A stretch of 64,000 nt of DNA, from positions 3,209,489 to 3,273,488 of the forward strand of contig OY282375.1 of the NCBI GenBank assembly GCA_958295825.1, given 5' to 3'. The notes beneath the pieces are model-generated. The model ran no database searches and was not told where the DNA came from. It worked only from the letters and a program-made list of their open reading frames with translations. This document shows, in pieces, positions 51,733 to 63,884 of the stretch (position 1 is the stretch's first letter; every line of letters begins with the position of its first letter). The position numbers and the translations under genes were made by a program. Origin of the DNA: an uncultured Candidatus Entotheonella sp. (GTDB lineage Bacteria > Tectomicrobia > Entotheonellia > Entotheonellales > Entotheonellaceae).

Positions 51733-52209
51733 TCACTGCGGCGGCTCCGGGAAAGCGGGCGCGTCGTCCGGCTGCGGTGCGCCGGTCAATATCCGCAGCG
51801 CGTCCACGGACGCTTCCACACCCGACAGACGTTCATTCAAGCGGCCCATCTCCACACGCACGGCCTCGAACTCTTGGCTCATATCGCTGCGCAGGCCGCC
51901 CATTTCCGAACGCACGGCCTTGAATTCCCGGCTCACGTGGTCGCGCAGACCGCCTATCTCCGTCGGCACCGTTTCGGCCAGCGTATCCACCCGGCCGTCG
52001 AGCGCCCGGACGTCCTGGCGCAACGCGTCGATGCTTCCCAGCAGCGGCGCCACCGTCGAGGTTACGACCCATTGCATGCTGGAGACGGCCCACTGCATAC
52101 CGCCCACAATGCCCCCGACAAGAATCACCAAGGCCACGGCAAAGGCCAGCTATTCCTTGAAGCCGAAGAACAGGCTGCCGGGCTTGACCGTTTCATCGCG
52201 TACCGCCAC
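51733..52209 (-). pseudogene. Coiled-coil membrane protein, copy 1, nonsense mutation
   Basis: From GTG 52209 the minus strand gives VAVRDETVKPGSLFFGFKE and then a TAG stop where copy 2 (52287-52790) has a leucine codon. The frame continues as LAFAVALVILVGGIVGGM (transmembrane), a coiled coil (GSIDALRQDVRALDGRVDTL, REFKAVRSEMGGLRSDM) and a tail RLSGVEASVDALRILTGAP that differs from copy 2. An internal GTG (52137) could give a 134-residue product lacking the N-terminus and half the membrane helix. More likely the gene is dead. Confidence 0.65.
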
Positions 52210-52286
52210 GTCTGCCTCGCGGCATTTTCCTCAAGCGCCTGAACGCGGTCGTCGAGGTTGCGAACGCCTCGCAGGCGGCAAGGTCT

Positions 52287-52790
52287 TCATTCCGTCTCCG
52301 TTGCCGGCGTGCTGGCGGCCCCGGCTTGGCCGGTACGCTGTTCGAGCAGGGTTTCCACCCGCGTCAGGCGCTCGCTGAGGGCTGCGATATCCTCGCGGAC
52401 GTTGACGATCTCTCCCCGCACGGCCTTGAATTCCTGGCTCATGTCGCTGCGCAGACCGCCTATCTCCGTCGGCACCGTTTCGGCCAGCGTATGCACCCGG
52501 CTGTCGAGCGCCCGGACGTCCTGGCGCAACGCGTCGATGCTTCCCAGCAGCGGCGCTACCGTCGAGGTTACGACCCATTGCATGCTGGAGACGGCCCACT
52601 GCATGCCGCCCACAATGCCCCCGACAAGAATCACCAGGGCCACGGCAAAGGCCAGCAACTCCTTGAAGCCGACGGACAGGCCACCGGGCTTGACCGTTTC
52701 ATCGCGTACCGCCATGTCTGCCCGATGAAGTCGATGGCTGAGGCGGCCTCGGCGTACCCGGGGCTTGACCGTTTCATCGCGTACCGACAT
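52287..52790 (-). CDS. Membrane-anchored coiled-coil protein, copy 2
   Basis: The 167-residue protein starts at ATG 52790, which has an excellent AGGAGGC site. The first ten residues (MSVRDETVKP) are repeated at 26-35 (MAVRDETVKP), reflecting a small DNA duplication. A transmembrane helix follows (LLAFAVALVILVGGIVGGMQ, about 45-64), then a coiled coil (GSIDALRQDVRALDSRVHTL, MSQEFKAVRGEIVNVREDI). The tail AALSERLTRVETLLEQR and AGAASTPATETE is shared with the next gene at 52883. Function unknown; it is one of several related genes in this region. Confidence 0.7.
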   Translation of the reverse strand: MSVRDETVKPRVRRGRLSHRLHRADMAVRDETVKPGGLSVGFKELLAFAVALVILVGGIVGGMQWAVSSMQWVVTSTVAPLLGSIDALRQDVRALDSRVHTLAETVPTEIGGLRSDMSQEFKAVRGEIVNVREDIAALSERLTRVETLLEQRTGQAGAASTPATETE

Positions 52791-52882
52791 GTCTGCCTCC
52801 TGCGTCTCTGCCTCGCGGCATTTTCTTCAAGCGCCTGAACGCGGTCGTCGAGGTTGCGAACGCCTCGCAGGCGGCAAGGTCT

Positions 52883-53371
52883 TCATTCCGTCTCCGTTGC
52901 CGGCGTGCTGGCGGCCCCGGCTTGGCCGGCGCGCTGTTCGAGCAGGGTTTCCACCCGCGTCAGGCGCTCGCTGAGGGCTGCGATATCCTCGCGGACGTTG
53001 ACGATCTCTCCCCGCACGGCCTTGAATTCACGGTCTACGGCCTCGAAGCGGCGATCCAAGACCTCGAAGCGGTGATCCACGGCCTCGAACTGGCGATCCA
53101 CGGCCTCGAACTGGCGGTCCACGGCCTCGAAGCGGCGGTCTACGGCCTCGAATCCGCGCCGCATGTCCTCGCGCAGCAGACGCACGTCTTCGCGCAGCAG
53201 GCGCATGTCTTCACGCATCGGCGTGACGGCCATCGACACGACCAGGCCCATGCCGGCGATCATGACCACGACGAGGGCTGCCGCGGCGCTGATAACCTGA
53301 ATGAAGTCTCTGGAGGTGGGCAGCTGCGGGCTTGCGGGTTGTGCCGGCGGTGTCTGGTTTTCCACGACCAT
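52883..53371 (-). CDS. Membrane-anchored coiled-coil protein, copy 3 (FEAVDR repeats)
   Basis: The 162-residue product starts at ATG 53371 with AAAGGAGG upstream. After a Pro-rich cytosolic segment comes a transmembrane helix (about residues 27-49, VISAAAALVVVMIAGMGLVV). A coiled coil of REDMRLL units and six to seven heptads follows (FEAVDRR, FEAVDRQ, FEVLDRR and similar). Its last ~50 residues (VRGEIVNVREDIAALSERLT to the end) are nearly identical to copy 2, so the genes are mosaics. Function unknown. Confidence 0.7.
   Translation of the reverse strand: MVVENQTPPAQPASPQLPTSRDFIQVISAAAALVVVMIAGMGLVVSMAVTPMREDMRLLREDVRLLREDMRRGFEAVDRRFEAVDRQFEAVDRQFEAVDHRFEVLDRRFEAVDREFKAVRGEIVNVREDIAALSERLTRVETLLEQRAGQAGAASTPATETE
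53040..53165 (-). repeat. 21-bp repeats encoding FEAVDR heptads
   Basis: Units of the form (cgg)cctcgaagcggcgatccac recur about six times on the plus strand, each encoding one heptad of the coiled coil on the minus strand. Confidence 0.75.
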
Positions 53372-53448
53372 GAGTGCTTTTCCTCCTTTGTCGGCATCAT
53401 ACGCCGGTTGGCACGGGAAGCAAGCTGCGGACCCTTGCCATGCAATAC

Positions 53449-54215
53449 CGGCGCGGAGCCGGTAGGGAAGGGAACGGTCGGCAAAGCACAGAAATTCAGG
53501 GCCGTGACGCCTCTCCGGGAGCGCGGGCATCTTGCCCGCAGGGTTCCTGCTTGGCGGGCTGGAAGCCCGCGCTCCCAGGGCGAGGCCGCAAGGCGACTTC
53601 TGAAACCGGCCGGTGCGTGATTAAAAAAGGCGCGTGGGAGAAATTCCCCACACGCCTTCCTGTTACGGTAAACGAATGGATTGTGTCCACAAGACTGGGG
53701 CGGCGCGGAGCCGGTAGGGAAGGAAACGGTCGGCAAAGCGTAGACGTGCAGGGCCGTGACGCCTTTCCGGGAGCGTGGGCATTTTGTGCGCAGGGTTCCT
53801 GCTTGGCGGGCTGGAAGCCCGCGCTCCCAGCGGCCGTCTTCCGGTTTTTGGCGCTACGTCAAGGAAGGATTGGGCCCGCAAAATTGGGGCGGCGTGGAGC
53901 CGGTAGGGAAGGGAACGGTCGGCAAAGCGTAGACGTGCAGGACCGTGACGCCTTTCCGGGAGCGTGGGCATTTTGTCCGCAGGGTTCCTGCTTGGCGGGC
54001 TGGAAGCCCGCGCTCCCAGCGGCCGTATCCCGGTTTTTGGCGCTACGTCAAGGAAGGATTGGGCCCGCAAAATTGGGGCGGCGTGGAGCCGGTAGGGAAG
54101 GGAACGGTCGGCAAAGCGTAGGAATGCAGGACCGTGATGCCTCTCCGGGAGCGCGGGCATCTTGCCCGCAGGGTTCCTACTTGGCGGGCTGGAAGCCCGC
54201 GCTCCCAGGGCAAAC
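53449..54215. repeat. Four-copy REP-like array, period 189 bp, in an 850-base non-coding stretch
   Basis: Units starting with GGAGCCGGTAGGGAAGG at about 53456, 53705, 53894 and 54083 repeat almost exactly; the last three are 189 bases apart. Each contains palindromes (GCGGGCATCTTGCCCGC or its GTGGGCATTTTG variant, and GGCGGGCTGGAAGCCCGC). The open frames here (for example 53374-54351 plus and 53663-54160 minus) consist only of the repeats and are not genes. Confidence 0.85.
53622..53659 (-). terminator. Duplicated copy of the local terminator
   Basis: The hairpin GGCGTGTGGGGAATTTCTCC to CACGCGCC followed by six T on the minus strand matches those at 51368 and 54228. Its flank (TTACGGTAAACGAATGGA) matches the flank of the 54228 copy, so a whole gene end seems to have been duplicated. 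No intact gene is directly upstream of it. Confidence 0.75.
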
Positions 54216-54292: not shown

Positions 54293-57200
54293 CTAACGCG
54301 TGGCGCCGTAGGCGCCGACGAGATGCAATACATCCACAATCCGAGTGTTGAACGTGCCGGTTACCGCCGGTGGCTGCGCGGTAGTGGGGCTGACATTGGC
54401 GTGGTGGTCCACGAAGGCGTGTGACCACTTGCCATCGCTGGTATATCCTGGGATGTCAATCTTCGCTACGCCATCCATGGCAGTGGCCGCCAAGGCGTTC
54501 GCTGGCCTAGTCAGATCCACAACCCAAGTGTCCGCCGTTATCGGGTTGGTGCTGCCGCCCGTGGGCGTCGTTTTGAAGGTGTCTATCGTGCCTTTAATAT
54601 TGTTGGCATCACTAGCGCCGCCGCTAAAGTTGACAGTCAGGCGAACGTCAGCGGTAAATTCCCCCTGCCTGGTTGTGACGCCGGTGTCGCTAGCCTGGCG
54701 CTTCTCGACGTACATGCCGACCGCGGCGCCGTTATATTGGGCAGTGCCCGCGACACCGGTTAATGTAGCGTCACCTCCCACGTTCTTGGCGAAAACGCCA
54801 AATTCGTAATCCCTAAGCGCACTTGCCGGTTCACTTCGCCACCAGCCAAACGCCATGTATTCCGCATCGCCTGTCGTCACGCACTCATCATTATTTGCAC
54901 AGAAGGAAATGGATGCTGTGGCGCTTCTGGGCCTGAAATAAAGTGTTCCGCCGCTAGTCGTTGCCAGTGTCACGCTAGTCAATCTACTACCATCGTAGGT
55001 GCCCGTTGCCGTAATCATGCAGTTGGCCACTCCTGAGCATACGAACTGGCCAGAGACGCCGTGTACACTGCCGCTGAAGGAGCTCCGCATCGCCGTCGTA
55101 GAACTCGACCTAAGACCATGGCTTATGGAAAGACGTTCGTTTATTGGTCTTGTTGACCGGGCAACAAAGTTAGTGCTCCCATCGACGGAAAGAGGGGCGG
55201 CGGAGAGAGGAAATTGCCCGGATGACCAGGTACTGGCGTAATGATCCTGCAGGCTCCGGCTCAATTCGCGGTCCGTGTAAACGACGGTTGTCTGCTCGAT
55301 GCCGCCGCTTGTGCGCGTCAGTTTCGCGCCGCGGAATCCTACCGAACTGCTTCTGGACGTGTAGCCGGCCCGCTCGAACGTCAACCTGCTCCTGCGTGGC
55401 ACGGTAATATCAAGACCACTTGGCAAGTCGACCAGCGGGCTCGTAGAAGCGTCTCCAAAAAGCGTCAGCAGCTTGTCTGCCCGTTGGTTCGCCTCCAGGG
55501 TTTGCGCTTGTTGAGTCGCACGGTCTCTTTCACCCCGGGCGATACGCAGCTGCTCCTGGGTTGTCGCCAGGGCGTTCTGGGCCGTCGCCAAGTTGGACCT
55601 GGCGGCAGCCAGCTGGCCTCGCAGGCTGTCGGCGGCCGGGTTTGTTGCGTCACCAATCTGCGCTTGAAGTGCCGTCACCCTGGCGTTGGCGGCAGCCAGC
55701 TGGCCTCGCAGGCTGGTGGCGGCAGGGTTTGTTGCGTCGCCAATCTGCGTTCCAAGCCTGGTCACCGCGGCGTTGGCGGCAGCCAGCTGGCCTCGCAGGC
55801 TGTCGGCGGCAGGGTTTGTTGCGTCGCCAAGCAGCGTTTCAAGCTCCGCCACCCTGGCGTTAGCGGCAGACAGCATGCCTCGCAGGCTGGTGTCGGTCGG
55901 GTCTGTTTCGGCGCCAATCTGCGTTTCAAGCTCCGCCACCCTGGCCTTGGCAGTAGCCAACATGCCTCGCAGGCTGGTGTCGGTCGGGTCTGTTTCGTCG
56001 CCAATCTGCGTTGTAAGCCTCGTCACCTCGGCGTTGGCGGCAGCCAGCTGGCCTCGCAGGCTGGTGTCGGCAGGGTCTGTTTCGTCGCCAAGCAGCGTTT
56101 CAAGCTCCGCCACCCTGGCGTTGGCGGCAGCCAGCATGCCTCGGGTGCTGTCGGCGGCCGGGTTTGTTGCGTCGCCAAGCAGCGTTGTAAGCCTCGTCAC
56201 CTCGGCGTTGGCAGTAGCCAACCGGCCTCGCAGGCTGTCGGCGGTCGGGTCTGTTTCGACGCCAATCAGCGTTTCAAGCTCCGCCACCCTGGCGTTGGCG
56301 GTAGCCAGCATGCCTCGGGTGCTGTCGGCGGCCGGGTTTGTTGCGTCGCCAAGCAGCGTTTCAAGCTCCGCCACCCTGGCGTTGGCGGTAGCCAGCTGGC
56401 CTCGCAGGCTGTCGGCGGTCGGGTCTGTTTCGACGCCAATCAGCGTTTCAAGCCTCGTCACCTCGGCGTTGGCGGCAGCCAGCTGGCCTCGCAGGCTGTC
56501 GGCGGTCGGGTCTGTTGCGTCGCCAAGCAGCGTTTCAAGCGCCGCCACCCTGGCCTTGGCGGCAGCCAGCATGCCTCGGGTGCTGTCGGCGGCCGGGTTT
56601 GTTGCGTCGCCAAGCAGCGTTGTAAGCCTCGTCACCTCGGCGTTGGCGGCAGCCAGCTGGCCTCGCAGGCTGTCGGCGGTTGTTGCGTCGCCAATCTGCG
56701 TTTCAAGCTCCGCCACCCTGGCGTTGGCGGCAGCCAGCATGCCTCGGGTGCTGTCGGCGGCCGGGTCTGTTTCGTCGCCAATCAGCGTTGTAAGCCTCGT
56801 CACCTCGGCGTTGGCGGCAGCCAGCTGGCCTCGCAGGCTGTCGGCATTAGGGTTTGTTTCGTCGACAAGCAGCGTTGTAAGCGCCGTCACCCTGGCGTTG
56901 GCGGCAGCCAGCTGGCCTCGCAGGCTGTCGGCGGCCGGGTCTGTTTCGGTGCCAATCAGCGTTGTAAGCCTCGTCACCTCGGCGTTGGCGGTAGCCAGCT
57001 CGACTCGCAGGCTGTCGGCGGCCGGGTCTGTTTCGGCGCCAATCTGCGTTTCAAGCGCCGTCACCCTGGCGTTGGCGGCAGCCAACATGCCTCGCAGGCT
57101 GTCGGCGGTTGTTGCGTCGCCAATCAGCGTTTCAAGCTCCGCCACCCTGGCCTTGGCGGCAGCCAGCATGCCTCGGGTGCTGTCGGCGGTCGGGTCTGTT

Positions 57201-57631
57201 TCGGCGCCAAGCAGCGTTGTAAGCCTCGTCACCTCGGCGTTGGCGGCAGCCAACATGCCTCGCAGGCTGGTGGCGGCAGGGTCTGTTTCGGCGCCAAGCA
57301 GCGTTTCAAGCTCCGCCACCCTGGCCTTGGCGGCAGCCAGCATGCCTCGGGTGCTGTCGGCGGTCGGGTCTGTTTCGGCGCCAAGCAGCGTTTCAAGCTC
57401 CGCCACCCTGGCCTTGGCGGCAGCCAGCATGCCTCGGGTGCTGGTAGCGGTCGGGTCTGTTTCGGCGCCAAGCAGCGTTTCAAGCTCCGCCACCCTGGTG
57501 TTGGCGGTGTCCAGCAGCGCCTGCAAATCCTTTTTCGCGCCGTCGTCACCGCTGCCGCCGCACCCCTGAAGTACGAACATGGCTGCTGCGCAAAGCAGCA
57601 CGACCCACACCCGATGCCTGTTCCGGTTCAT
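54293..57631 (-). CDS. Large coiled-coil surface lipoprotein with TbpB-like C-terminal domain
   Basis: The 1112-residue product has a lipoprotein signal (VVLLCAAAMFVLQGC, Cys 24, followed by Gly). About 22 tandem units of roughly 29 residues follow, with the pattern RVAELETLLGAETDP then (T/A)ADSxRGMLAAA. They form a long coiled coil to about residue 700, with a heptad linker after. The C-terminal ~370 residues look like a beta-rich TbpB/HpuA-like barrel: GTAQYNGAAVGMYVEKRQ then GEFTADVRLTVNFSGG and NNIKGTI. It ends AYGATR. This architecture and the adjacent Slam gene suggest display on the outer surface. The ATG at 57631 has GAGGGGAAGAG upstream. Ligand unknown. Confidence 0.8.
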   Translation of the reverse strand: MNRNRHRVWVVLLCAAAMFVLQGCGGSGDDGAKKDLQALLDTANTRVAELETLLGAETDPTATSTRGMLAAAKARVAELETLLGAETDPTADSTRGMLAAAKARVAELETLLGAETDPAATSLRGMLAAANAEVTRLTTLLGAETDPTADSTRGMLAAAKARVAELETLIGDATTADSLRGMLAAANARVTALETQIGAETDPAADSLRVELATANAEVTRLTTLIGTETDPAADSLRGQLAAANARVTALTTLLVDETNPNADSLRGQLAAANAEVTRLTTLIGDETDPAADSTRGMLAAANARVAELETQIGDATTADSLRGQLAAANAEVTRLTTLLGDATNPAADSTRGMLAAAKARVAALETLLGDATDPTADSLRGQLAAANAEVTRLETLIGVETDPTADSLRGQLATANARVAELETLLGDATNPAADSTRGMLATANARVAELETLIGVETDPTADSLRGRLATANAEVTRLTTLLGDATNPAADSTRGMLAAANARVAELETLLGDETDPADTSLRGQLAAANAEVTRLTTQIGDETDPTDTSLRGMLATAKARVAELETQIGAETDPTDTSLRGMLSAANARVAELETLLGDATNPAADSLRGQLAAANAAVTRLGTQIGDATNPAATSLRGQLAAANARVTALQAQIGDATNPAADSLRGQLAAARSNLATAQNALATTQEQLRIARGERDRATQQAQTLEANQRADKLLTLFGDASTSPLVDLPSGLDITVPRRSRLTFERAGYTSRSSSVGFRGAKLTRTSGGIEQTTVVYTDRELSRSLQDHYASTWSSGQFPLSAAPLSVDGSTNFVARSTRPINERLSISHGLRSSSTTAMRSSFSGSVHGVSGQFVCSGVANCMITATGTYDGSRLTSVTLATTSGGTLYFRPRSATASISFCANNDECVTTGDAEYMAFGWWRSEPASALRDYEFGVFAKNVGGDATLTGVAGTAQYNGAAVGMYVEKRQASDTGVTTRQGEFTADVRLTVNFSGGASDANNIKGTIDTFKTTPTGGSTNPITADTWVVDLTRPANALAATAMDGVAKIDIPGYTSDGKWSHAFVDHHANVSPTTAQPPAVTGTFNTRIVDVLHLVGAYGATR
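55560..57520 (-). repeat. Tandem ~87-bp repeats in the lipoprotein gene (about 22 units)
   Basis: Each unit encodes one 27-29-residue coiled-coil repeat. A few units (with ATTADSLRG) are two codons shorter. The repeats keep long open frames on the opposite strand, which are shadows. Confidence 0.9.
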
Positions 57632-57798: not shown

Positions 57799-59094
57799 CT
57801 AGAACTGCCGCACGAAGCGCAGCTCGGCGCGGTTGCGGTCGTAGTCCTGCGCCTGGGCGTTGGTCTGGCGGGCTTCATGGATGAGCGCCAACTGGGGGCT
57901 GAAGCCGAAAAGCGTGAAGGCGCGGTTGAGGATGGAAACGCTGAAGGCGTGGGTGCGGTCCCGCCGCCCCTTGCCGCGCAGCGTCAGGTGCACCTGGCCG
58001 CTGCCCTCGTAATACGTCCGCCGCATCTGGGCGCTGGTGCCCAGGGTGAAGCCCAGCGGCAGGGCGAGCGAGGTGCCCACCCGCACCCAGCGCCCCAGGC
58101 TGCGCCAGTGCTCGGACGCCGCATGGTCGCGCTCGTAGCCCACCGTCAGGTGGACGCGCAGCACGGGCGCCGGCGTCCAGGCCAAACCGAGGGTGAAATC
58201 GGCCAGCGGGCCGGCGAGAAAATCGCGCTGGCGGTGGGTGCGCTCACGGTATCCCGCGGTACCGCGCGCCCATAGCCGCGACGTCAGCCGGCGGTCGAGC
58301 TCGAGGCGCACGCCGGTCTCGTCGACATACCGTTCGCCGCCCAGCCACTGCCGCTGCGCGGTGCCCAGCAGGCTGATCTCGGTAAGCGGGCCGGCCAGCC
58401 AGCGCGGCCCGACGTGGGCGGCCAGGAAGCTCTGATCGAAGTCGCTGCCGCCGTAGTCCCGCTGCACCACGTCGGCGCCCACCCGCAACCGCAGCCGTTG
58501 GCTCAGCGGCTGCTGGTACTCGCCGCCGCCCCACACCGAGAGGCCCAGGCCCGAACGGGCGCCAAAGTCTCCCTGACGCTGGAAGGGCAGCCGCCCGAAC
58601 GCCGTGTCGATGTAGATGATCTCGCTCTCCGAGGCGGCGTTGAGGTTGCTGTCCGGGGCGACGGCGGCGCCAAAATAGCCCGTCCAGCGCTTGCGGGCGC
58701 GCATGACGCCCAAGAAGCGCTGGATGTTGGCGGCGACGGAGGGCGGCACCCCGCCGGCCAGCACCAGCTCGAAATGCCGCCGCGCCAGCCCGTCCTTTCC
58801 CCTGAGGAAGAACGTCAGCGCCAGTTCCAGACGCACCCGCACCAGCTCCGGTCGATTGACCAGGATGAGCCGGAAGGCGGCGATGGCCTTGTCGTACAGC
58901 GCCCGGCGCGCCTTCTCGCCGTCGGCCTGCTCGGCCTCGGCCAGGGCCGCCGTGCCAATGCGGAACAGGGCGGCGATGCGGTCGTCGCCATCGAGCGGCG
59001 GCGCTTCTTGGGCGTGCGCCGCAGCCGCCAGAATCACGCAGGCCAGCAGGGGAGTCAGGGCAAGCGCCCACCAGAAGGAGCGGGGATTCGTCAT
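57799..59094 (-). CDS. Surface lipoprotein assembly modifier (Slam)-like outer-membrane protein
   Basis: The 431-residue protein has a signal peptide (residues about 8-28, ending AAAHAQ). A periplasmic TPR-like helical region follows (KARRALYDKAIAAFRLILVN, LALTFFLRGKDGLARRHFEL). A C-terminal beta-barrel of about 290 residues starts at GYFGAAVAPDSNLNAASE, the hallmark of the Slam/DUF560 family, and ends with an aromatic (RFVRQF). Slams help lipoproteins with TbpB-like barrels reach the cell surface. Two such candidate substrates flank it. ATG 59094 is preferred; the frame upstream encodes a remnant of another gene. It lies 167 bases before the 57631 lipoprotein start. Confidence 0.82.
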   Translation of the reverse strand: MTNPRSFWWALALTPLLACVILAAAAHAQEAPPLDGDDRIAALFRIGTAALAEAEQADGEKARRALYDKAIAAFRLILVNRPELVRVRLELALTFFLRGKDGLARRHFELVLAGGVPPSVAANIQRFLGVMRARKRWTGYFGAAVAPDSNLNAASESEIIYIDTAFGRLPFQRQGDFGARSGLGLSVWGGGEYQQPLSQRLRLRVGADVVQRDYGGSDFDQSFLAAHVGPRWLAGPLTEISLLGTAQRQWLGGERYVDETGVRLELDRRLTSRLWARGTAGYRERTHRQRDFLAGPLADFTLGLAWTPAPVLRVHLTVGYERDHAASEHWRSLGRWVRVGTSLALPLGFTLGTSAQMRRTYYEGSGQVHLTLRGKGRRDRTHAFSVSILNRAFTLFGFSPQLALIHEARQTNAQAQDYDRNRAELRFVRQF

Positions 59095-59129
59095 CGAAGG
59101 GTCTCGTCTCTTGGGTTCGGATGTCGGAT

Positions 59130-59215
59130 AAGAAGGGCGGCAAGGGAGCCGCGCGGCAAAGGCCAGCAATTCCTTGACGCCGGCAGGCGGCCTGAGCGTT
59201 TCACCGTGCGTTAGC
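59130..59215 (-). pseudogene. Relic of a coiled-coil membrane protein N-terminus
   Basis: The minus strand just upstream of the Slam gene reads SLTHGETLRPPAGVKELLAF then AARLP. This matches the start of copy 2 (VRDETVKPGGLSVGFKELLAFAVAL). It is a short fragment fused to unrelated sequence, evidence of past recombination. Confidence 0.5.
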
Positions 59216-59235
59216 GATACCGTCTCTGGCGTCCC

Positions 59236-59528
59236 TTATTTCCCGGCGCTTTCTTCAAGCGCCCGGACGCGGCCGCCGATGGTGCGGATGTCCTCGCGGT
59301 TGGTAAAGGTCTCGCGGATCATTTCGGTGCGCAGATTGGCGTTATCCACGCGAAGCTCGGCGCGGATTTCGGATAGTTCCTTGTGGAGGTCCGCGAATCC
59401 CTTGGCAATGGCCTGCGTGTTGGCGACGATGGCTTGCGTGTTGGCGCAACGCCGCTCCATATCGTCCACAGCAGGACGATGTTCGCCAAGGCAGCGGCGA
59501 CGATGACCCAGAAGTCGGCCCTGTTCAT
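59236..59528 (-). pseudogene. Membrane-anchored coiled-coil protein, frameshifted
   Basis: ATG 59528 begins MNRADFWVIVAAALANIVLL (transmembrane) and WTIWS, then the frame is lost near 59455. The other frame continues as ERRCANTQAIVANTQAIAKG, FADLHKELSEIRAELRVDN and EDIRTIGGRVRALEESAGK to the stop at 59236. A single insertion or deletion would restore a ~95-residue protein of the same topology as the copies at 52287 and 63435. Confidence 0.6.
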
Positions 59529-59697
59529 CCTTCACCTCCGATCCAGAGCCCTTACGCGGGCGGCCCGACTTGGCGCGAGCCCCGAAAAGAATACGTTTGA
59601 CGGACGGGAAAGTAAACAGGAATCGCTCAACCGAGGGGGCCTGAAAGGCCCTCGTGGACAGGCCAGCCAGGGAAAGGGGGACGGACGAGACCACGTC

Positions 59698-59737
59698 ACA
59701 AAAAAAGCGGGCAGCCAAGGAATGGACTGCCCGCTCG
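59698..59737 (-). terminator. Terminator of the 940-residue lipoprotein gene
   Basis: On the minus strand AGCGGGCAG and CTGCCCGCT enclose a 12-base loop and are followed by at least seven T. It lies about 50 bases past the stop codon. Confidence 0.9.
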
Positions 59738-59786
59738 TCAATGCGGAGATCAGGGCCCCTTCAGGAGAGCCCTGCCCGGCAGTTTA

Positions 59787-62609
59787 TTACTCGGCCACCC
59801 TTCTGGCCCCAAAACCGCCAGTGACGCCGACAAAGCCCGCGTCGGAGTTGGCCGACATATCCGCCGTGCCGCGCTGGGCGCCGAACGTTCCGACGACGCC
59901 GCTCGGATGCACCGTGGCATCTTCATCGGTGATCAACACCTCGCCCGGACCCGCATTACCGACAAACTGGACGCCCCATCTGCCGGCCAAGCTGGCGCCG
60001 CCCGCACTGCCCGTGGTATCGCCGTCCACAAAGCTGCCGGCATCTGTAGTAGTCACTGTAGCGTCATCGTCAGCGTTGGCCATCGCGAGCGGAATGGTCT
60101 CAAGAGTGATCCGCCAGTCGACGGCTACATCGTCGTCCCGGTTGAAGTCCTTGATCACCCCTGAGATTGCACCTGGGCCATCAGCAGTGCCGCCACTGCC
60201 GTCAGTGTCTCTAGCAAGACCTGTGTCACCTGAGTCACTACTAAGAGGACCACTAGCGGCGTCGAAATCAGCGTTCAACTCGGCTGTCGCCGTGAACGTG
60301 CCTGACACGGCGCCCTGGGAATTGGCAGGACGCTCGGCGTAAAAACCGGCCGCCGAGCCACTGTATTTCGCCTTACCTGTAAGTTCTATTATCCCGTTGT
60401 GGTCAGCGGTGTCCGCGGCGGGACCACGAGGGGAGGAAGCATCGAATAGATCGTTCCCCATGCCCAAGGCGACAGCGTAGCTCCTGCCAACCAGGCGGTC
60501 CGGCTTGTCCAGCCAAGCGCCATAGACGAGATAGTCCGGGTCGGGAAGGGTTGCATCAGCGGCGGGAATGAAACGCCATTCATGCTTCAGCAGAATGTCG
60601 CCAACATCAACGGCGGGATTGCCATTGGTAGCACCTGAAGTACTAGCAGCTAAAGTAGAAGCACTTAGTTCGATTGTGCAACTATTACCAGCGGCAGTGC
60701 TGCAGATATAGTTGCCTGGTATGCCGTTATAGGAACCCGAGCGAATTGCTCCCGAGACAACATATCGGATCGGATTGGAGTCGGTCGGAGCATAGCCGCC
60801 CAGATCAAGGACGACGTTGGCGTCATCAGTGAGATTTATGAGCCTCTCACGATCAGGGAGAGCAGTAAGCGTATACTCATAACGTTGACCCTCAAGCTCC
60901 GAGTCAGCAATACCGGGCTGGTTCTCCATGGCTGTCCGTGTCAGCGGTACGGGCGCCTGAATGTCCGTCATGAGGTGGACGTGCCTGGCCCGCCCGCCAA
61001 GGAGGTCTATTTCTTCCATGCCCGACGTGTCGTCTCCGGAGCCCACCGGGACTTCGAAGTCAATGAGCGTCTCCAACGTGTCTCCGGATCCAGACGTCGA
61101 CCCGAAGGTGACCATGGAACCCTCACGCGACGCTGTCAGCGTCAGAGCCGTGGGCTGAGCTTGCTCTCCCTGGTACCCCCTCACGACGCTGGCAGAGCTG
61201 CCCCGGACAGGTACCGTCTCACCAGTATCAGCAAAGTCGCCGTCGCCATTCAGGTCAACCCCCGGTGTTGTTACAACTTGCCGACCGGCCGTATTCTGGA
61301 TTCCAAGTGCGTCCACCCTCGCCCGCTGGGCAACTTCAGCGTCTTCCTCCTCTCTCGTGAGTTCTGCCAGCCTCTCCTCTGCAGCCATCCTGGCTGCCTC
61401 GGCGGCGGCAAGAGCCTCCTGCGCCGTCTCCAGTTCGGCAGCGGCGGCAGCAGCAGCAGCAGCAGCGGCGTCCTGCGCAGCCTGCAGGGCGGCGGCAGCT
61501 TGGGTAGCAGCAGCAGCGGCGGCGTCCTCCGCAGCCTGCAGGTCGGCGGCAGCTTGGGTAGCAGCAGCAGCAGCGGCGTCCTGCGCAGCCTGCAGGGCGG
61601 TGTCAGCATCCCGCGCAGCATCCTGCGCAGCATCCCTCGCCTGCTGCAGGGCGGTGGCAGCATCCCGCGCAGCATCCTGCGCAGCATCCCTCGCCTGCTG
61701 CAGGGCGGCGTTAGCGGCGGCAGCATCATCCTCCGCCATCTTCAGGTCGTCGGCAGCTTGGGTAGCAGCAGCGGCGGCGGCGTCCTGCGCAGCCTGCAGG
61801 TCGGCGGCAGCTTGGGTAGCAGCAGCGGCGGCGGCGTCCTGCGCGGCCTTCAGGTCGGCGGCAGCTTGGGCAGCAGCAGCAGCGGCGGCGTCCTGCGCAG
61901 CCTTCAGGTCGGCGGCAGCTTGGGTAGCAGCAGCGGCGGCAGCAGCGGCGGCGGCGTCCTGCGCGGCCTGCAGGTCGGCGGCAGCTTGGGTAGCAGCAGC
62001 AGCAGCGGCGTCCTGCGCAGCCTGCAGGACAGCGTTAGCAGCCTCCAGGTCGGCGTTAGCGGTATCAGCAGCATCCTGCGCAGCCTCCAGGGCGGCGTTA
62101 GCGGTGGCGGCGGCAGCCTGCGCCGTCTCCAGTTCGGCAGCGGCGGCGGCAGCGGCAGCGGCAGCGGCCTCCTCTGCCATCTCCAGGTCGGCAGCGGCGG
62201 CGGCAGCGGCAGCGGCAGCATTATCCTCCGCCGTCTTCAGGGCGGCGGCAGCGGCGACAGCAGCATCCTGCGCATCATCCCTCGCCTGCTGCAGGTCGGC
62301 GGCAGCTTGGGTAGCAGCAGCGGCGGCGGCAGCCTGCGCCGTCTCCAGTTCGGCAGCGGCGGCGGCAGCGGCAGCGGCAGCGGCATCCTGCGCAGCCTTC
62401 AGGTCGGCAGCGGCGGCGGCAGCGGCAGCGGCAGCGGCATCCTGCGCAGCCTGCAGGGCAGCGTTAGCAGCCTCCAGGTCGGCCTGCGACATGTCATACA
62501 GATCTTGACTGACCCCGGAATCACTACCGGAGCAGCCCTGAAGAACCATCGCCAGCATCGTAGCGGCAGCGACAATCCCTAACGCCCTTCCCAATTTCTT
62601 GAGGTTCAT
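59787..62609 (-). CDS. Alanine-rich coiled-coil surface lipoprotein with TbpB-like C-terminal domain
   Basis: The 940-residue product has a lipoprotein signal (GIVAAATMLAMVLQGC, Cys 26, then Ser-Gly). Some 400 residues of highly Ala-rich helix follow, built from units such as DLQAAQDAAAAAATQAAA. The C-terminal ~480 residues are beta-rich, with GKAKYSGSAAGFYAERPANS, GTFTATAELNADF and ISGVIKDFNRDD. These match the barrel signature of transferrin-binding-protein-like lipoproteins and the C-terminus of the 54293 gene. It ends GGFGARRVAE. GAGGAGG precedes the ATG. It is a likely Slam substrate; the bound ligand is unknown. Confidence 0.8.
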   Translation of the reverse strand: MNLKKLGRALGIVAAATMLAMVLQGCSGSDSGVSQDLYDMSQADLEAANAALQAAQDAAAAAAAAAAADLKAAQDAAAAAAAAAAAELETAQAAAAAAATQAAADLQQARDDAQDAAVAAAAALKTAEDNAAAAAAAAAADLEMAEEAAAAAAAAAAAELETAQAAAATANAALEAAQDAADTANADLEAANAVLQAAQDAAAAAATQAAADLQAAQDAAAAAAAAAATQAAADLKAAQDAAAAAAAQAAADLKAAQDAAAAAATQAAADLQAAQDAAAAAATQAADDLKMAEDDAAAANAALQQARDAAQDAARDAATALQQARDAAQDAARDADTALQAAQDAAAAAATQAAADLQAAEDAAAAAATQAAAALQAAQDAAAAAAAAAAAELETAQEALAAAEAARMAAEERLAELTREEEDAEVAQRARVDALGIQNTAGRQVVTTPGVDLNGDGDFADTGETVPVRGSSASVVRGYQGEQAQPTALTLTASREGSMVTFGSTSGSGDTLETLIDFEVPVGSGDDTSGMEEIDLLGGRARHVHLMTDIQAPVPLTRTAMENQPGIADSELEGQRYEYTLTALPDRERLINLTDDANVVLDLGGYAPTDSNPIRYVVSGAIRSGSYNGIPGNYICSTAAGNSCTIELSASTLAASTSGATNGNPAVDVGDILLKHEWRFIPAADATLPDPDYLVYGAWLDKPDRLVGRSYAVALGMGNDLFDASSPRGPAADTADHNGIIELTGKAKYSGSAAGFYAERPANSQGAVSGTFTATAELNADFDAASGPLSSDSGDTGLARDTDGSGGTADGPGAISGVIKDFNRDDDVAVDWRITLETIPLAMANADDDATVTTTDAGSFVDGDTTGSAGGASLAGRWGVQFVGNAGPGEVLITDEDATVHPSGVVGTFGAQRGTADMSANSDAGFVGVTGGFGARRVAE
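61420..62500 (-). repeat. Alanine-codon-rich tandem repeats in the lipoprotein gene
   Basis: Imperfect units of about 45-50 bases (gcagcagcggcggcggcgtcctgcgcagcctgcaggtcggcggc-like) repeat across the coiled-coil segment, dominated by GCN codons. Slippage and unit gain or loss would stay in frame. Confidence 0.85.
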
Positions 62610-63434: not shown

Positions 63435-63884
63435 TCAGGGCGCGGGGGCGTCGGCGGTCTGCAACTGCTCGGTGAGGATGTCGATTCGTGTTTCGTTCCG
63501 GATGACGCGGTCGTTGAGCTTGCGGAGTTCAGAGACATCTCTGACGAGGTCCTCGATGCGTCTGTCCTGGGCGTCGAAACGCTGGTTGATGTACTTGTCC
63601 TGGGCGTCGAAGCGCTGGTTGAATGATCTGTTCTGGGCGTCGAAGCGCTGGTTGATCGACCTGTCCTGGGCGTCAAAACGCTGGTTGATCGACCTGTCCT
63701 GGTCGTCGAAACGCTGGTCGATGTACCGGATCTGGTCGTCGATGCGCTGGTTGACGGCGGTGAAGCCTTGCTGCATGGGTCTGACGACGCTGAATTGGAT
63801 GATGGCCGCGAAGCCGCCGAGGACGGCAAGGGTCACCGTGATGGGACCTGCGTTGTCTTGGGTCCAGCGCCATATTTTCCGCAT
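63435..63884 (-). CDS. Membrane-anchored coiled-coil protein with 11-residue repeats
   Basis: The 149-residue product has one transmembrane helix (about residues 12-34, ITVTLAVLGGFAAIIQFSVV). A coiled coil made of 11-residue units follows (INQRFDAQDRS, FNQRFDAQDKY and similar). It ends with the module DVSELRKLNDRVIRNETRID then LTEQLQTADAPAP, shared with 46544 and 62964. A GGAGGATAT site precedes ATG 63884. Eleven-residue (hendecad) periodicity differs from the heptads of its relatives. Function unknown. Confidence 0.75.
   Translation of the reverse strand: MRKIWRWTQDNAGPITVTLAVLGGFAAIIQFSVVRPMQQGFTAVNQRIDDQIRYIDQRFDDQDRSINQRFDAQDRSINQRFDAQNRSFNQRFDAQDKYINQRFDAQDRRIEDLVRDVSELRKLNDRVIRNETRIDILTEQLQTADAPAP
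63580..63720 (-). repeat. 33-bp repeats encoding 11-residue coiled-coil units
   Basis: Four to five units of the pattern gcgtcgaa(a/g)cgctggttgat plus a variable spacer encode NQRFDAQDRSI-like hendecads on the minus strand. Confidence 0.8.

What the first reader, a model, noticed from the sequence alone, without database searches (positions are those of the whole stretch)
57799..62609. Slam-like translocon flanked by two huge candidate substrate lipoproteins
Seen: a signal peptide + TPR + barrel protein of Slam type, with lipobox proteins of 1112 and 940 residues on either side. Both have long coiled coils and share a C-terminal signature (KYSGSAAGFYAERP against QYNGAAVGMYVEKR). Known: Slam proteins export lipoproteins with TbpB/HpuA-like barrels. 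Inference: the coiled coils act as long stalks, perhaps tens of nanometres, presenting a TbpB-like head. Stalks this long between lipid anchor and barrel are not a feature of classical Slam substrates.
Basis: partly seen in the sequence, partly recalled or inferred. Interest (0 to 1): 0.75.

Follow-up and report, generated by a model that had tools for sequence, protein, structure and literature searches.

The report
Slam exporter with long-stalked surface lipoproteins
A bacterium outside the Proteobacteria carries a known kind of outer-membrane exporter (Slam, type 11 secretion) flanked by two very large lipoproteins that join a lipid anchor to a TbpB-like export barrel through unusually long, repeat-built helical spacers.

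Summary
A Slam gene (57799-59094, -; full-length PF04575 match, 2e-24) lies between two lipobox proteins of 940 and 1112 aa. Both have helical repeat regions (18-aa and 29-aa units) and homologous C-termini. The TbpB idea is supported by sequence, not by a fold. The window heads alone hit nothing in Pfam, but the 25-member family they seed has one member above Pfam's TbpB_B_D cut-off, and its barrel aligns to local TbpB_B_D proteins with HHalign E=3e-11 (score 77; 30 shuffled controls at most 16.5). Family members sit 0.55-1.1 kb upstream of Slam, same strand, at 9 of 16 Slam genes in five genomes. Slam is present in 14 of 17 further genomes with the family and 0 of 7 without. AlphaFold heads are unusable (pLDDT about 40). 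The claimed novelty is weaker: Slam/T11SS cargo with long helical repeats before the barrel is already described and tested (Pls-like, PMC12282271). What is new is degree and place: spacers of about 450 and 700 aa, spacer length varying 99-722 aa between related loci, heads diverging much faster than Slam, and occurrence in Tectimicrobiota and Nitrospirota. Whether the spacer is a stalk or an adhesive effector is undecided.

The parts
59787..62609 (-). Slam-adjacent cargo lipoprotein 1 (P0002, 940 aa): SPII signal and lipobox, ~395-450 aa Ala-rich helical spacer of 18-aa units, pedestal and TbpB-like barrel
   Evidence: upstream same-strand position shared with L006, L009, L043 and others
61453..62457 (-). 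repeat-coding stretch of lipoprotein 1, 54-bp units, about 19 copies
   Evidence: TRF 61452-62457, period 54, 74% match
59790..61262 (-). conserved head of lipoprotein 1 (two-Cys pedestal plus C-terminal barrel)
   Evidence: A4 alignment of 25 members; HHalign to TbpB_B_D family E 3e-11
57799..59094 (-). Slam / T11SS outer-membrane protein (431 aa): signal peptide, short TPR region, SlipAM barrel
   Evidence: PF04575 2e-24, 1-288/288; TPR_Slam 4.7e-4 partial
54293..57631 (-). cargo lipoprotein 2 (P0001, 1112 aa): SPII signal and lipobox, ~690 aa of 29-aa repeats, pedestal and TbpB-like barrel
55600..57507 (-). repeat-coding stretch of lipoprotein 2, 87-bp units, 22 copies
   Evidence: TRF 83% match
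54296..55531 (-). conserved head of lipoprotein 2
59236..59718 (-). ORF in the enlarged gap between cargo 1 and Slam, a degenerate-looking relative of small TM plus coiled-coil genes; probably not part of the system
   Evidence: 69-76% DNA matches to 52137-52286 and 52813-52882; gap is about 130 bp in the congeneric locus L006

Best explanation
This is a Slam (type 11 secretion) exporter with two cargo lipoproteins. Inferred route, by analogy with TbpB/Slam1: each lipoprotein crosses the inner membrane by Sec, is lipidated and carried to the outer membrane by Lol, its C-terminal TbpB-like barrel is recognised by Slam, the unfolded chain is threaded out, and the lipid flips to the outer leaflet last. 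The repeat-built helical region then ends up outside the cell between lipid and barrel, as a long tether or an adhesive helical fibre. Shown here: gene order, lipoboxes, Slam family membership, shared head family, remote homology of the barrel to TbpB_B_D, helical repeat spacers of very variable length. Inferred: export by this Slam, surface location, direction of threading, spacer function. The ligand is unknown; fast head divergence points to an interface under change rather than to transferrin.
For: SlipAM full-length match, one per genome. Both lipoproteins have SPII lipoboxes without Asp at +2 (sorting rule from E. coli, established knowledge). Head-family protein directly upstream and same strand at 9 of 16 Slam genes in 5 genomes, domain-to-domain 553-1104 bp, against a chance expectation of below 0.01 per Slam. 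Slam in 14 of 17 further genomes with the family and 0 of 7 without, Fisher p 3.5e-4. One member (L044) exceeds the TbpB_B_D cut-off (27.8 against 26 bits) over 4-125 of 126 at its barrel; HHalign E 3e-11, score 77 against at most 16.5 for 30 column-shuffled controls. L007's Slam-adjacent coiled lipoprotein is a clear TbpB_B_D protein (2.4e-16; TbpB 5kkx by sequence 5e-5). Literature: Slam-dependent lipoproteins share an eight-stranded barrel (PMC5449769); helical-repeat cargo exported by its cognate OMP in E. coli (PMC12282271); Slam1 moves unfolded TbpB (PMC9090332).
Against: Window heads give no Pfam or PDB hit on their own and no confident fold. TPR_Slam match is below cut-off. Export has not been tested. 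No TonB-dependent receptor lies among the neighbouring genes scanned. Two head-family paralogues in the same genome (L004, L005) are not near a Slam.
Confidence: 0.8

Rival explanations
1. Export is right but the helical part is the working part: the repeats are the adhesive effector, as in Pls, and the barrel is mainly the export tag. The 'stalk presenting a head' picture would be upside down.
For: Published cargo model: variable N-terminal effector, pedestal, C-terminal barrel as targeting domain, with long helical repeats counted as effector. N-terminal regions here are very diverse (Pro-rich, heptad coils, helical bundles) while pedestal and barrel are conserved.
Against: Low-complexity Ala-rich 18-aa units look like structural material rather than a binding surface; heads of Slam-adjacent cargo diverge strongly (34% identity beside 78% for Slam), which would be odd for a mere tag.
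Confidence: 0.4
2. The lipoproteins stay in the periplasm, anchored to the inner leaflet, with the coil spanning periplasm or peptidoglycan; Slam proximity concerns another substrate.
For: Long Ala-rich helical lipoproteins are a known periplasmic theme; no surface test exists here.
Against: Tight conserved same-strand pairing with Slam in several phyla and barrel homology to known Slam cargo. A 450-700 aa straight helix (60-100 nm) would far exceed a periplasm.
Confidence: 0.1
3. Only lipoprotein 1 is the cognate cargo; lipoprotein 2 is a neighbouring paralogue exported poorly or not at all.
For: The canonical place is upstream of Slam; lipoprotein 2 is downstream and its counterpart is not seen beside the Slam of the congeneric genome L006.
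Against: Same strand, 167 bp gap, same head family at E below 1e-70.
Confidence: 0.2

Closest known systems
Slam / type 11 secretion system (PF04575 SlipAM; N. meningitidis Slam1, TepS)
   Same: Full-length SlipAM barrel match, signal peptide, TPR-like N-terminal region, cargo gene next door
   Different: Found in a phylum outside Proteobacteria (Tectimicrobiota), where the surveys I could read do not place it; N-terminal TPR domain matched only weakly
Pls-like T11SS cargo (H. parahaemolyticus Pls, PMC12282271)
   Same: Lipidated N-terminus, long alpha-helical repeat region, then pedestal and C-terminal barrel; gene linked to the exporter
   Different: That protein is 525 aa with EEARKA-type repeats; here 940 and 1112 aa with 18-aa Ala-rich and 29-aa repeats, and a remote head family
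TbpB and other TbpB_B_D lipoproteins (PF01298)
   Same: C-terminal barrel remotely homologous; lipid anchor; Slam linkage
   Different: TbpB has two handle-barrel lobes and a short anchor peptide; here one lobe behind hundreds of helical residues, and no linked TonB-dependent receptor seen

Membership tests
Slam / T11SS outer-membrane protein | DUF560/SlipAM barrel domain over its whole length | tested here: met
   PF04575 2e-24, 1-288/288
Slam / T11SS outer-membrane protein | N-terminal periplasmic TPR domain | tested here: inconclusive
   TPR_Slam 4.7e-4, positions 61-102 of 104, below cut-off
Slam / T11SS outer-membrane protein | Translocates a lipoprotein to the cell surface | not testable with these tools
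   needs co-expression and surface labelling
Slam-dependent surface lipoprotein | Lipobox / SPII signal | tested here: met
   LQGC motifs in both, by inspection, no SignalP available
Slam-dependent surface lipoprotein | Gene linked to a Slam gene | tested here: met
   both adjacent; 9 of 16 Slams in five genomes have a family member directly upstream
Slam-dependent surface lipoprotein | C-terminal eight-stranded TbpB-like barrel: sequence homology | tested here: met
   through the family, not the single proteins: HHalign E 3e-11 with shuffled controls; one member above TbpB_B_D cut-off
Slam-dependent surface lipoprotein | C-terminal eight-stranded TbpB-like barrel: fold | tested here: inconclusive
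   AlphaFold pLDDT about 40, beta-rich only; Foldseek gave nothing significant
Pls-like T11SS cargo | Long helical repeat region between anchor and pedestal/barrel | tested here: met
   repeats and helix prediction
Pls-like T11SS cargo | Sequence homology to the Pls repeat | not tested
   no Pls sequence was on hand; the unit sequences differ from the EEARKA motif by eye

The most novel reading that the evidence does not exclude
A family of Slam cargo, spread over Tectimicrobiota, Nitrospirota, Alphaproteobacteria and Acidobacteria genomes, in which the distance between outer membrane and export barrel is an evolvable ruler: the anchor and the Slam stay conserved while repeat gain and loss moves the spacer between about 100 and 700 residues and the head diversifies. 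If so, Slam can export fibres tens of nanometres long.
Probability: 0.35. Interest if true: 0.6.

Novelty: new variant of a known kind. Interest (0 to 1): 0.42.

Why it matters
It carries type 11 secretion beyond the Proteobacteria, where the surveys I could read confine it, and gives a natural length series (spacers of 99, 173, 453, 706 and 722 aa behind related barrels) for asking how much chain a Slam can pass and whether the barrel leads. For the symbiont group it names likely surface adhesins or binders, which are largely unknown there.

Tried and rejected
Pfam and NCBIfam on whole lipoproteins: only spurious coil and low-complexity hits for the 1112-aa protein and none for the 940-aa one. 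PDB by sequence, with the Slam and with profiles A1 and A4: nothing. AlphaFold on stalk-end plus head with a 4-sequence alignment: heads pLDDT about 25-50; Foldseek on that model gave no match at E 0.001, as expected for a poor model, and is not used as evidence. HHalign of the 6-sequence alignment against a single TbpB_B_D protein was negative (4% probability); only the deeper 25- against 12-sequence comparison was positive, which should be weighed. Looking for a TonB-dependent receptor partner among ten neighbouring ORFs found none. Considered and rejected: that the head similarity is a chance motif match; that the Slam is a binning artefact (single-contig genome, and a second single-contig genome of the same genus has it).

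Full report
What is there. On the minus strand of the window, in the order of transcription, lie a 940-aa lipoprotein (62609-59787), a 690-bp gap, a 431-aa Slam-type outer-membrane protein (59094-57799), a 167-bp gap, and an 1112-aa lipoprotein (57631-54293). The Slam matches PF04575 over its full length (87 bits, cut-off 22) and is the only one in a 4.29 Mb single-contig genome. The genome belongs to the same genus as a 3.6 Mb single-contig genome whose size, contig number and Slam coordinates fit OX639990, deposited as uncultured Candidatus Entotheonella; I identify the two by that match, which is an inference. NCBI places Entotheonella in Candidatus Tectimicrobiota.

The lipoproteins. Both begin with a signal peptide and LQGC lipobox. 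The 940-aa protein then has about 395 residues of 18-aa Ala-rich units (54-bp DNA repeat, about 19 copies); the 1112-aa protein has 22 units of 29 aa (87-bp repeat, 83% match). Hydrophobicity peaks at 3.58 and 3.62 residues, as for an alpha helix. AlphaFold gives one continuous helix for the last ~110 stalk residues of the first (pLDDT mostly 79-90). For the second it gives helices of about 17-24 residues broken at the Pro-containing joints of most units, at low confidence. At 0.15 nm per residue the first spacer would be about 60 nm if straight. For the second, about 100 nm is an upper bound and a folded-back bundle would be far shorter.

The heads. A profile of the two heads plus four relatives found homologues in all four genomes that hold the nearest Slams. 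A 25-member alignment shows a pedestal with two conserved cysteines, a D..Yl.fGwW motif, and a barrel ending in GAFGA.r. The window heads alone have no Pfam match. The link to TbpB_B_D (PF01298) comes through the family: one member scores 27.8 bits against a cut-off of 26, over positions 4-125 of 126 (G146:C50, L044); a Nitrospirota member aligns 4-125 at E 0.006; and the family barrel aligned to twelve TbpB_B_D proteins from these genomes gives HHalign 97%, E 3e-11, score 77, against 7.6-16.5 for thirty column-shuffled controls. An earlier comparison with one TbpB_B_D sequence and six heads was negative. I take remote homology as well supported and the fold as untested.

Link to Slam. At 9 of 16 SlipAM genes in five genomes a family member lies directly upstream on the same strand, 553-1104 bp between domain edges; two more have a TbpB_B_D protein upstream; the chance expectation per Slam is below 0.01. 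The Nitrospira MAG holds three such pairs on one contig. In a wider search the family occurs in 7 of 28 genomes of the alphaproteobacterial order (counting the seed genome) and 12 of 396 Nitrospirota. Of 17 further genomes with the family, 14 have Slam; of 7 without, none does (Fisher p 3.5e-4). The seven comparison genomes were picked by me from those listed without a match, and most genomes are draft, so the test is indicative. Phylogenetic relatedness is not corrected for.

Spacer variation. Between lipobox and head the family has 76 to 722 residues: Pro-rich linkers, plain heptad coils, helical-bundle repeats and, in the window, the two tandem-repeat spacers, 453 and 706 by the same measure, among the three longest found. 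The congeneric locus L006 has a similar anchor (MNLDKLGRTLG...MVLQGC against MNLKKLGRALG...MVLQGC) and the same upstream neighbour, yet a spacer of only 99 residues. A Bryobacterales MAG has CGGDDGVSQS after its lipobox, as L006 does, and 722. Slam is 78% identical between the two congeners while the Slam-adjacent heads are 34% identical; a head pair away from Slam (L004/L036) is 59%. So the anchor and exporter are kept and the length and head change. Repeat slippage as the cause is inferred from the tandem arrays, not observed.

Mechanism. By analogy with TbpB and Slam1 (PMC9090332): Sec export, lipidation, Lol transfer, recognition of the C-terminal barrel by Slam, threading of unfolded chain, then lipid flip. 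Every step after gene order and homology is inferred here. Whether the helical part is a stalk or an adhesive effector is open; the 2025 survey of T11SS cargo treats such helical repeats as the effector region and showed surface display of a 525-aa example that needs its exporter (PMC12282271).

Distribution. Published surveys place Slam within Proteobacteria: one searched only its clades (PMC5449769), another describes it throughout that phylum (PMC8406197). Here it is in a single-contig Tectimicrobiota genome and its congener and in many Nitrospirota drafts. I found no paper that mentions Entotheonella together with surface lipoproteins, but most subscription literature is not in the library, and Pfam's own species list was not available. 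The 71-78% identity of Slams across Tectimicrobiota, an alphaproteobacterial MAG and a Bryobacterales MAG suggests horizontal transfer, or misbinning in the draft genomes; I did not separate these.

Verdict. A sound observation with a partly sound interpretation: a new variant of a known kind, of moderate interest.

Noticed in passing
51733-53530, 59236-59718, 63435-63884 (-): Several small genes or remnants coding a transmembrane segment plus coiled coil, with 21-, 33-, 54- and 63-bp internal repeats; related at DNA level to one another, one lying in the enlarged gap between cargo 1 and Slam.
   Followed up: partly
53678-54208: 189-bp tandem repeat, 2.8 copies, 94% match, just beyond the end of lipoprotein 2.
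   Followed up: no
L004 601-2115, L005 601-2118 (own genome, 2.936-2.940 Mb): Two tandem near-identical 504/505-aa lipoproteins with the same head family, a short non-coil spacer and no Slam beside them; one Slam may serve several cargo in trans.
   Followed up: partly
own genome 663696-664013, 691826-691933, 720901-721038: Three further genes with TbpB_B_D matches (one above cut-off), far from the Slam.
   Followed up: no
G146 contigs C15, C20, C31, C41 (L038-L046): The alphaproteobacterial MAG carries about 16-19 members of the head family, several in tandem, often at contig ends, with seven Slam matches: a marked cargo expansion.
   Followed up: partly
Slam of window against L007 and L008: 71-75% Slam identity across phyla, with a transposase near L007's locus; points to horizontal transfer or misbinning.
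   Followed up: no
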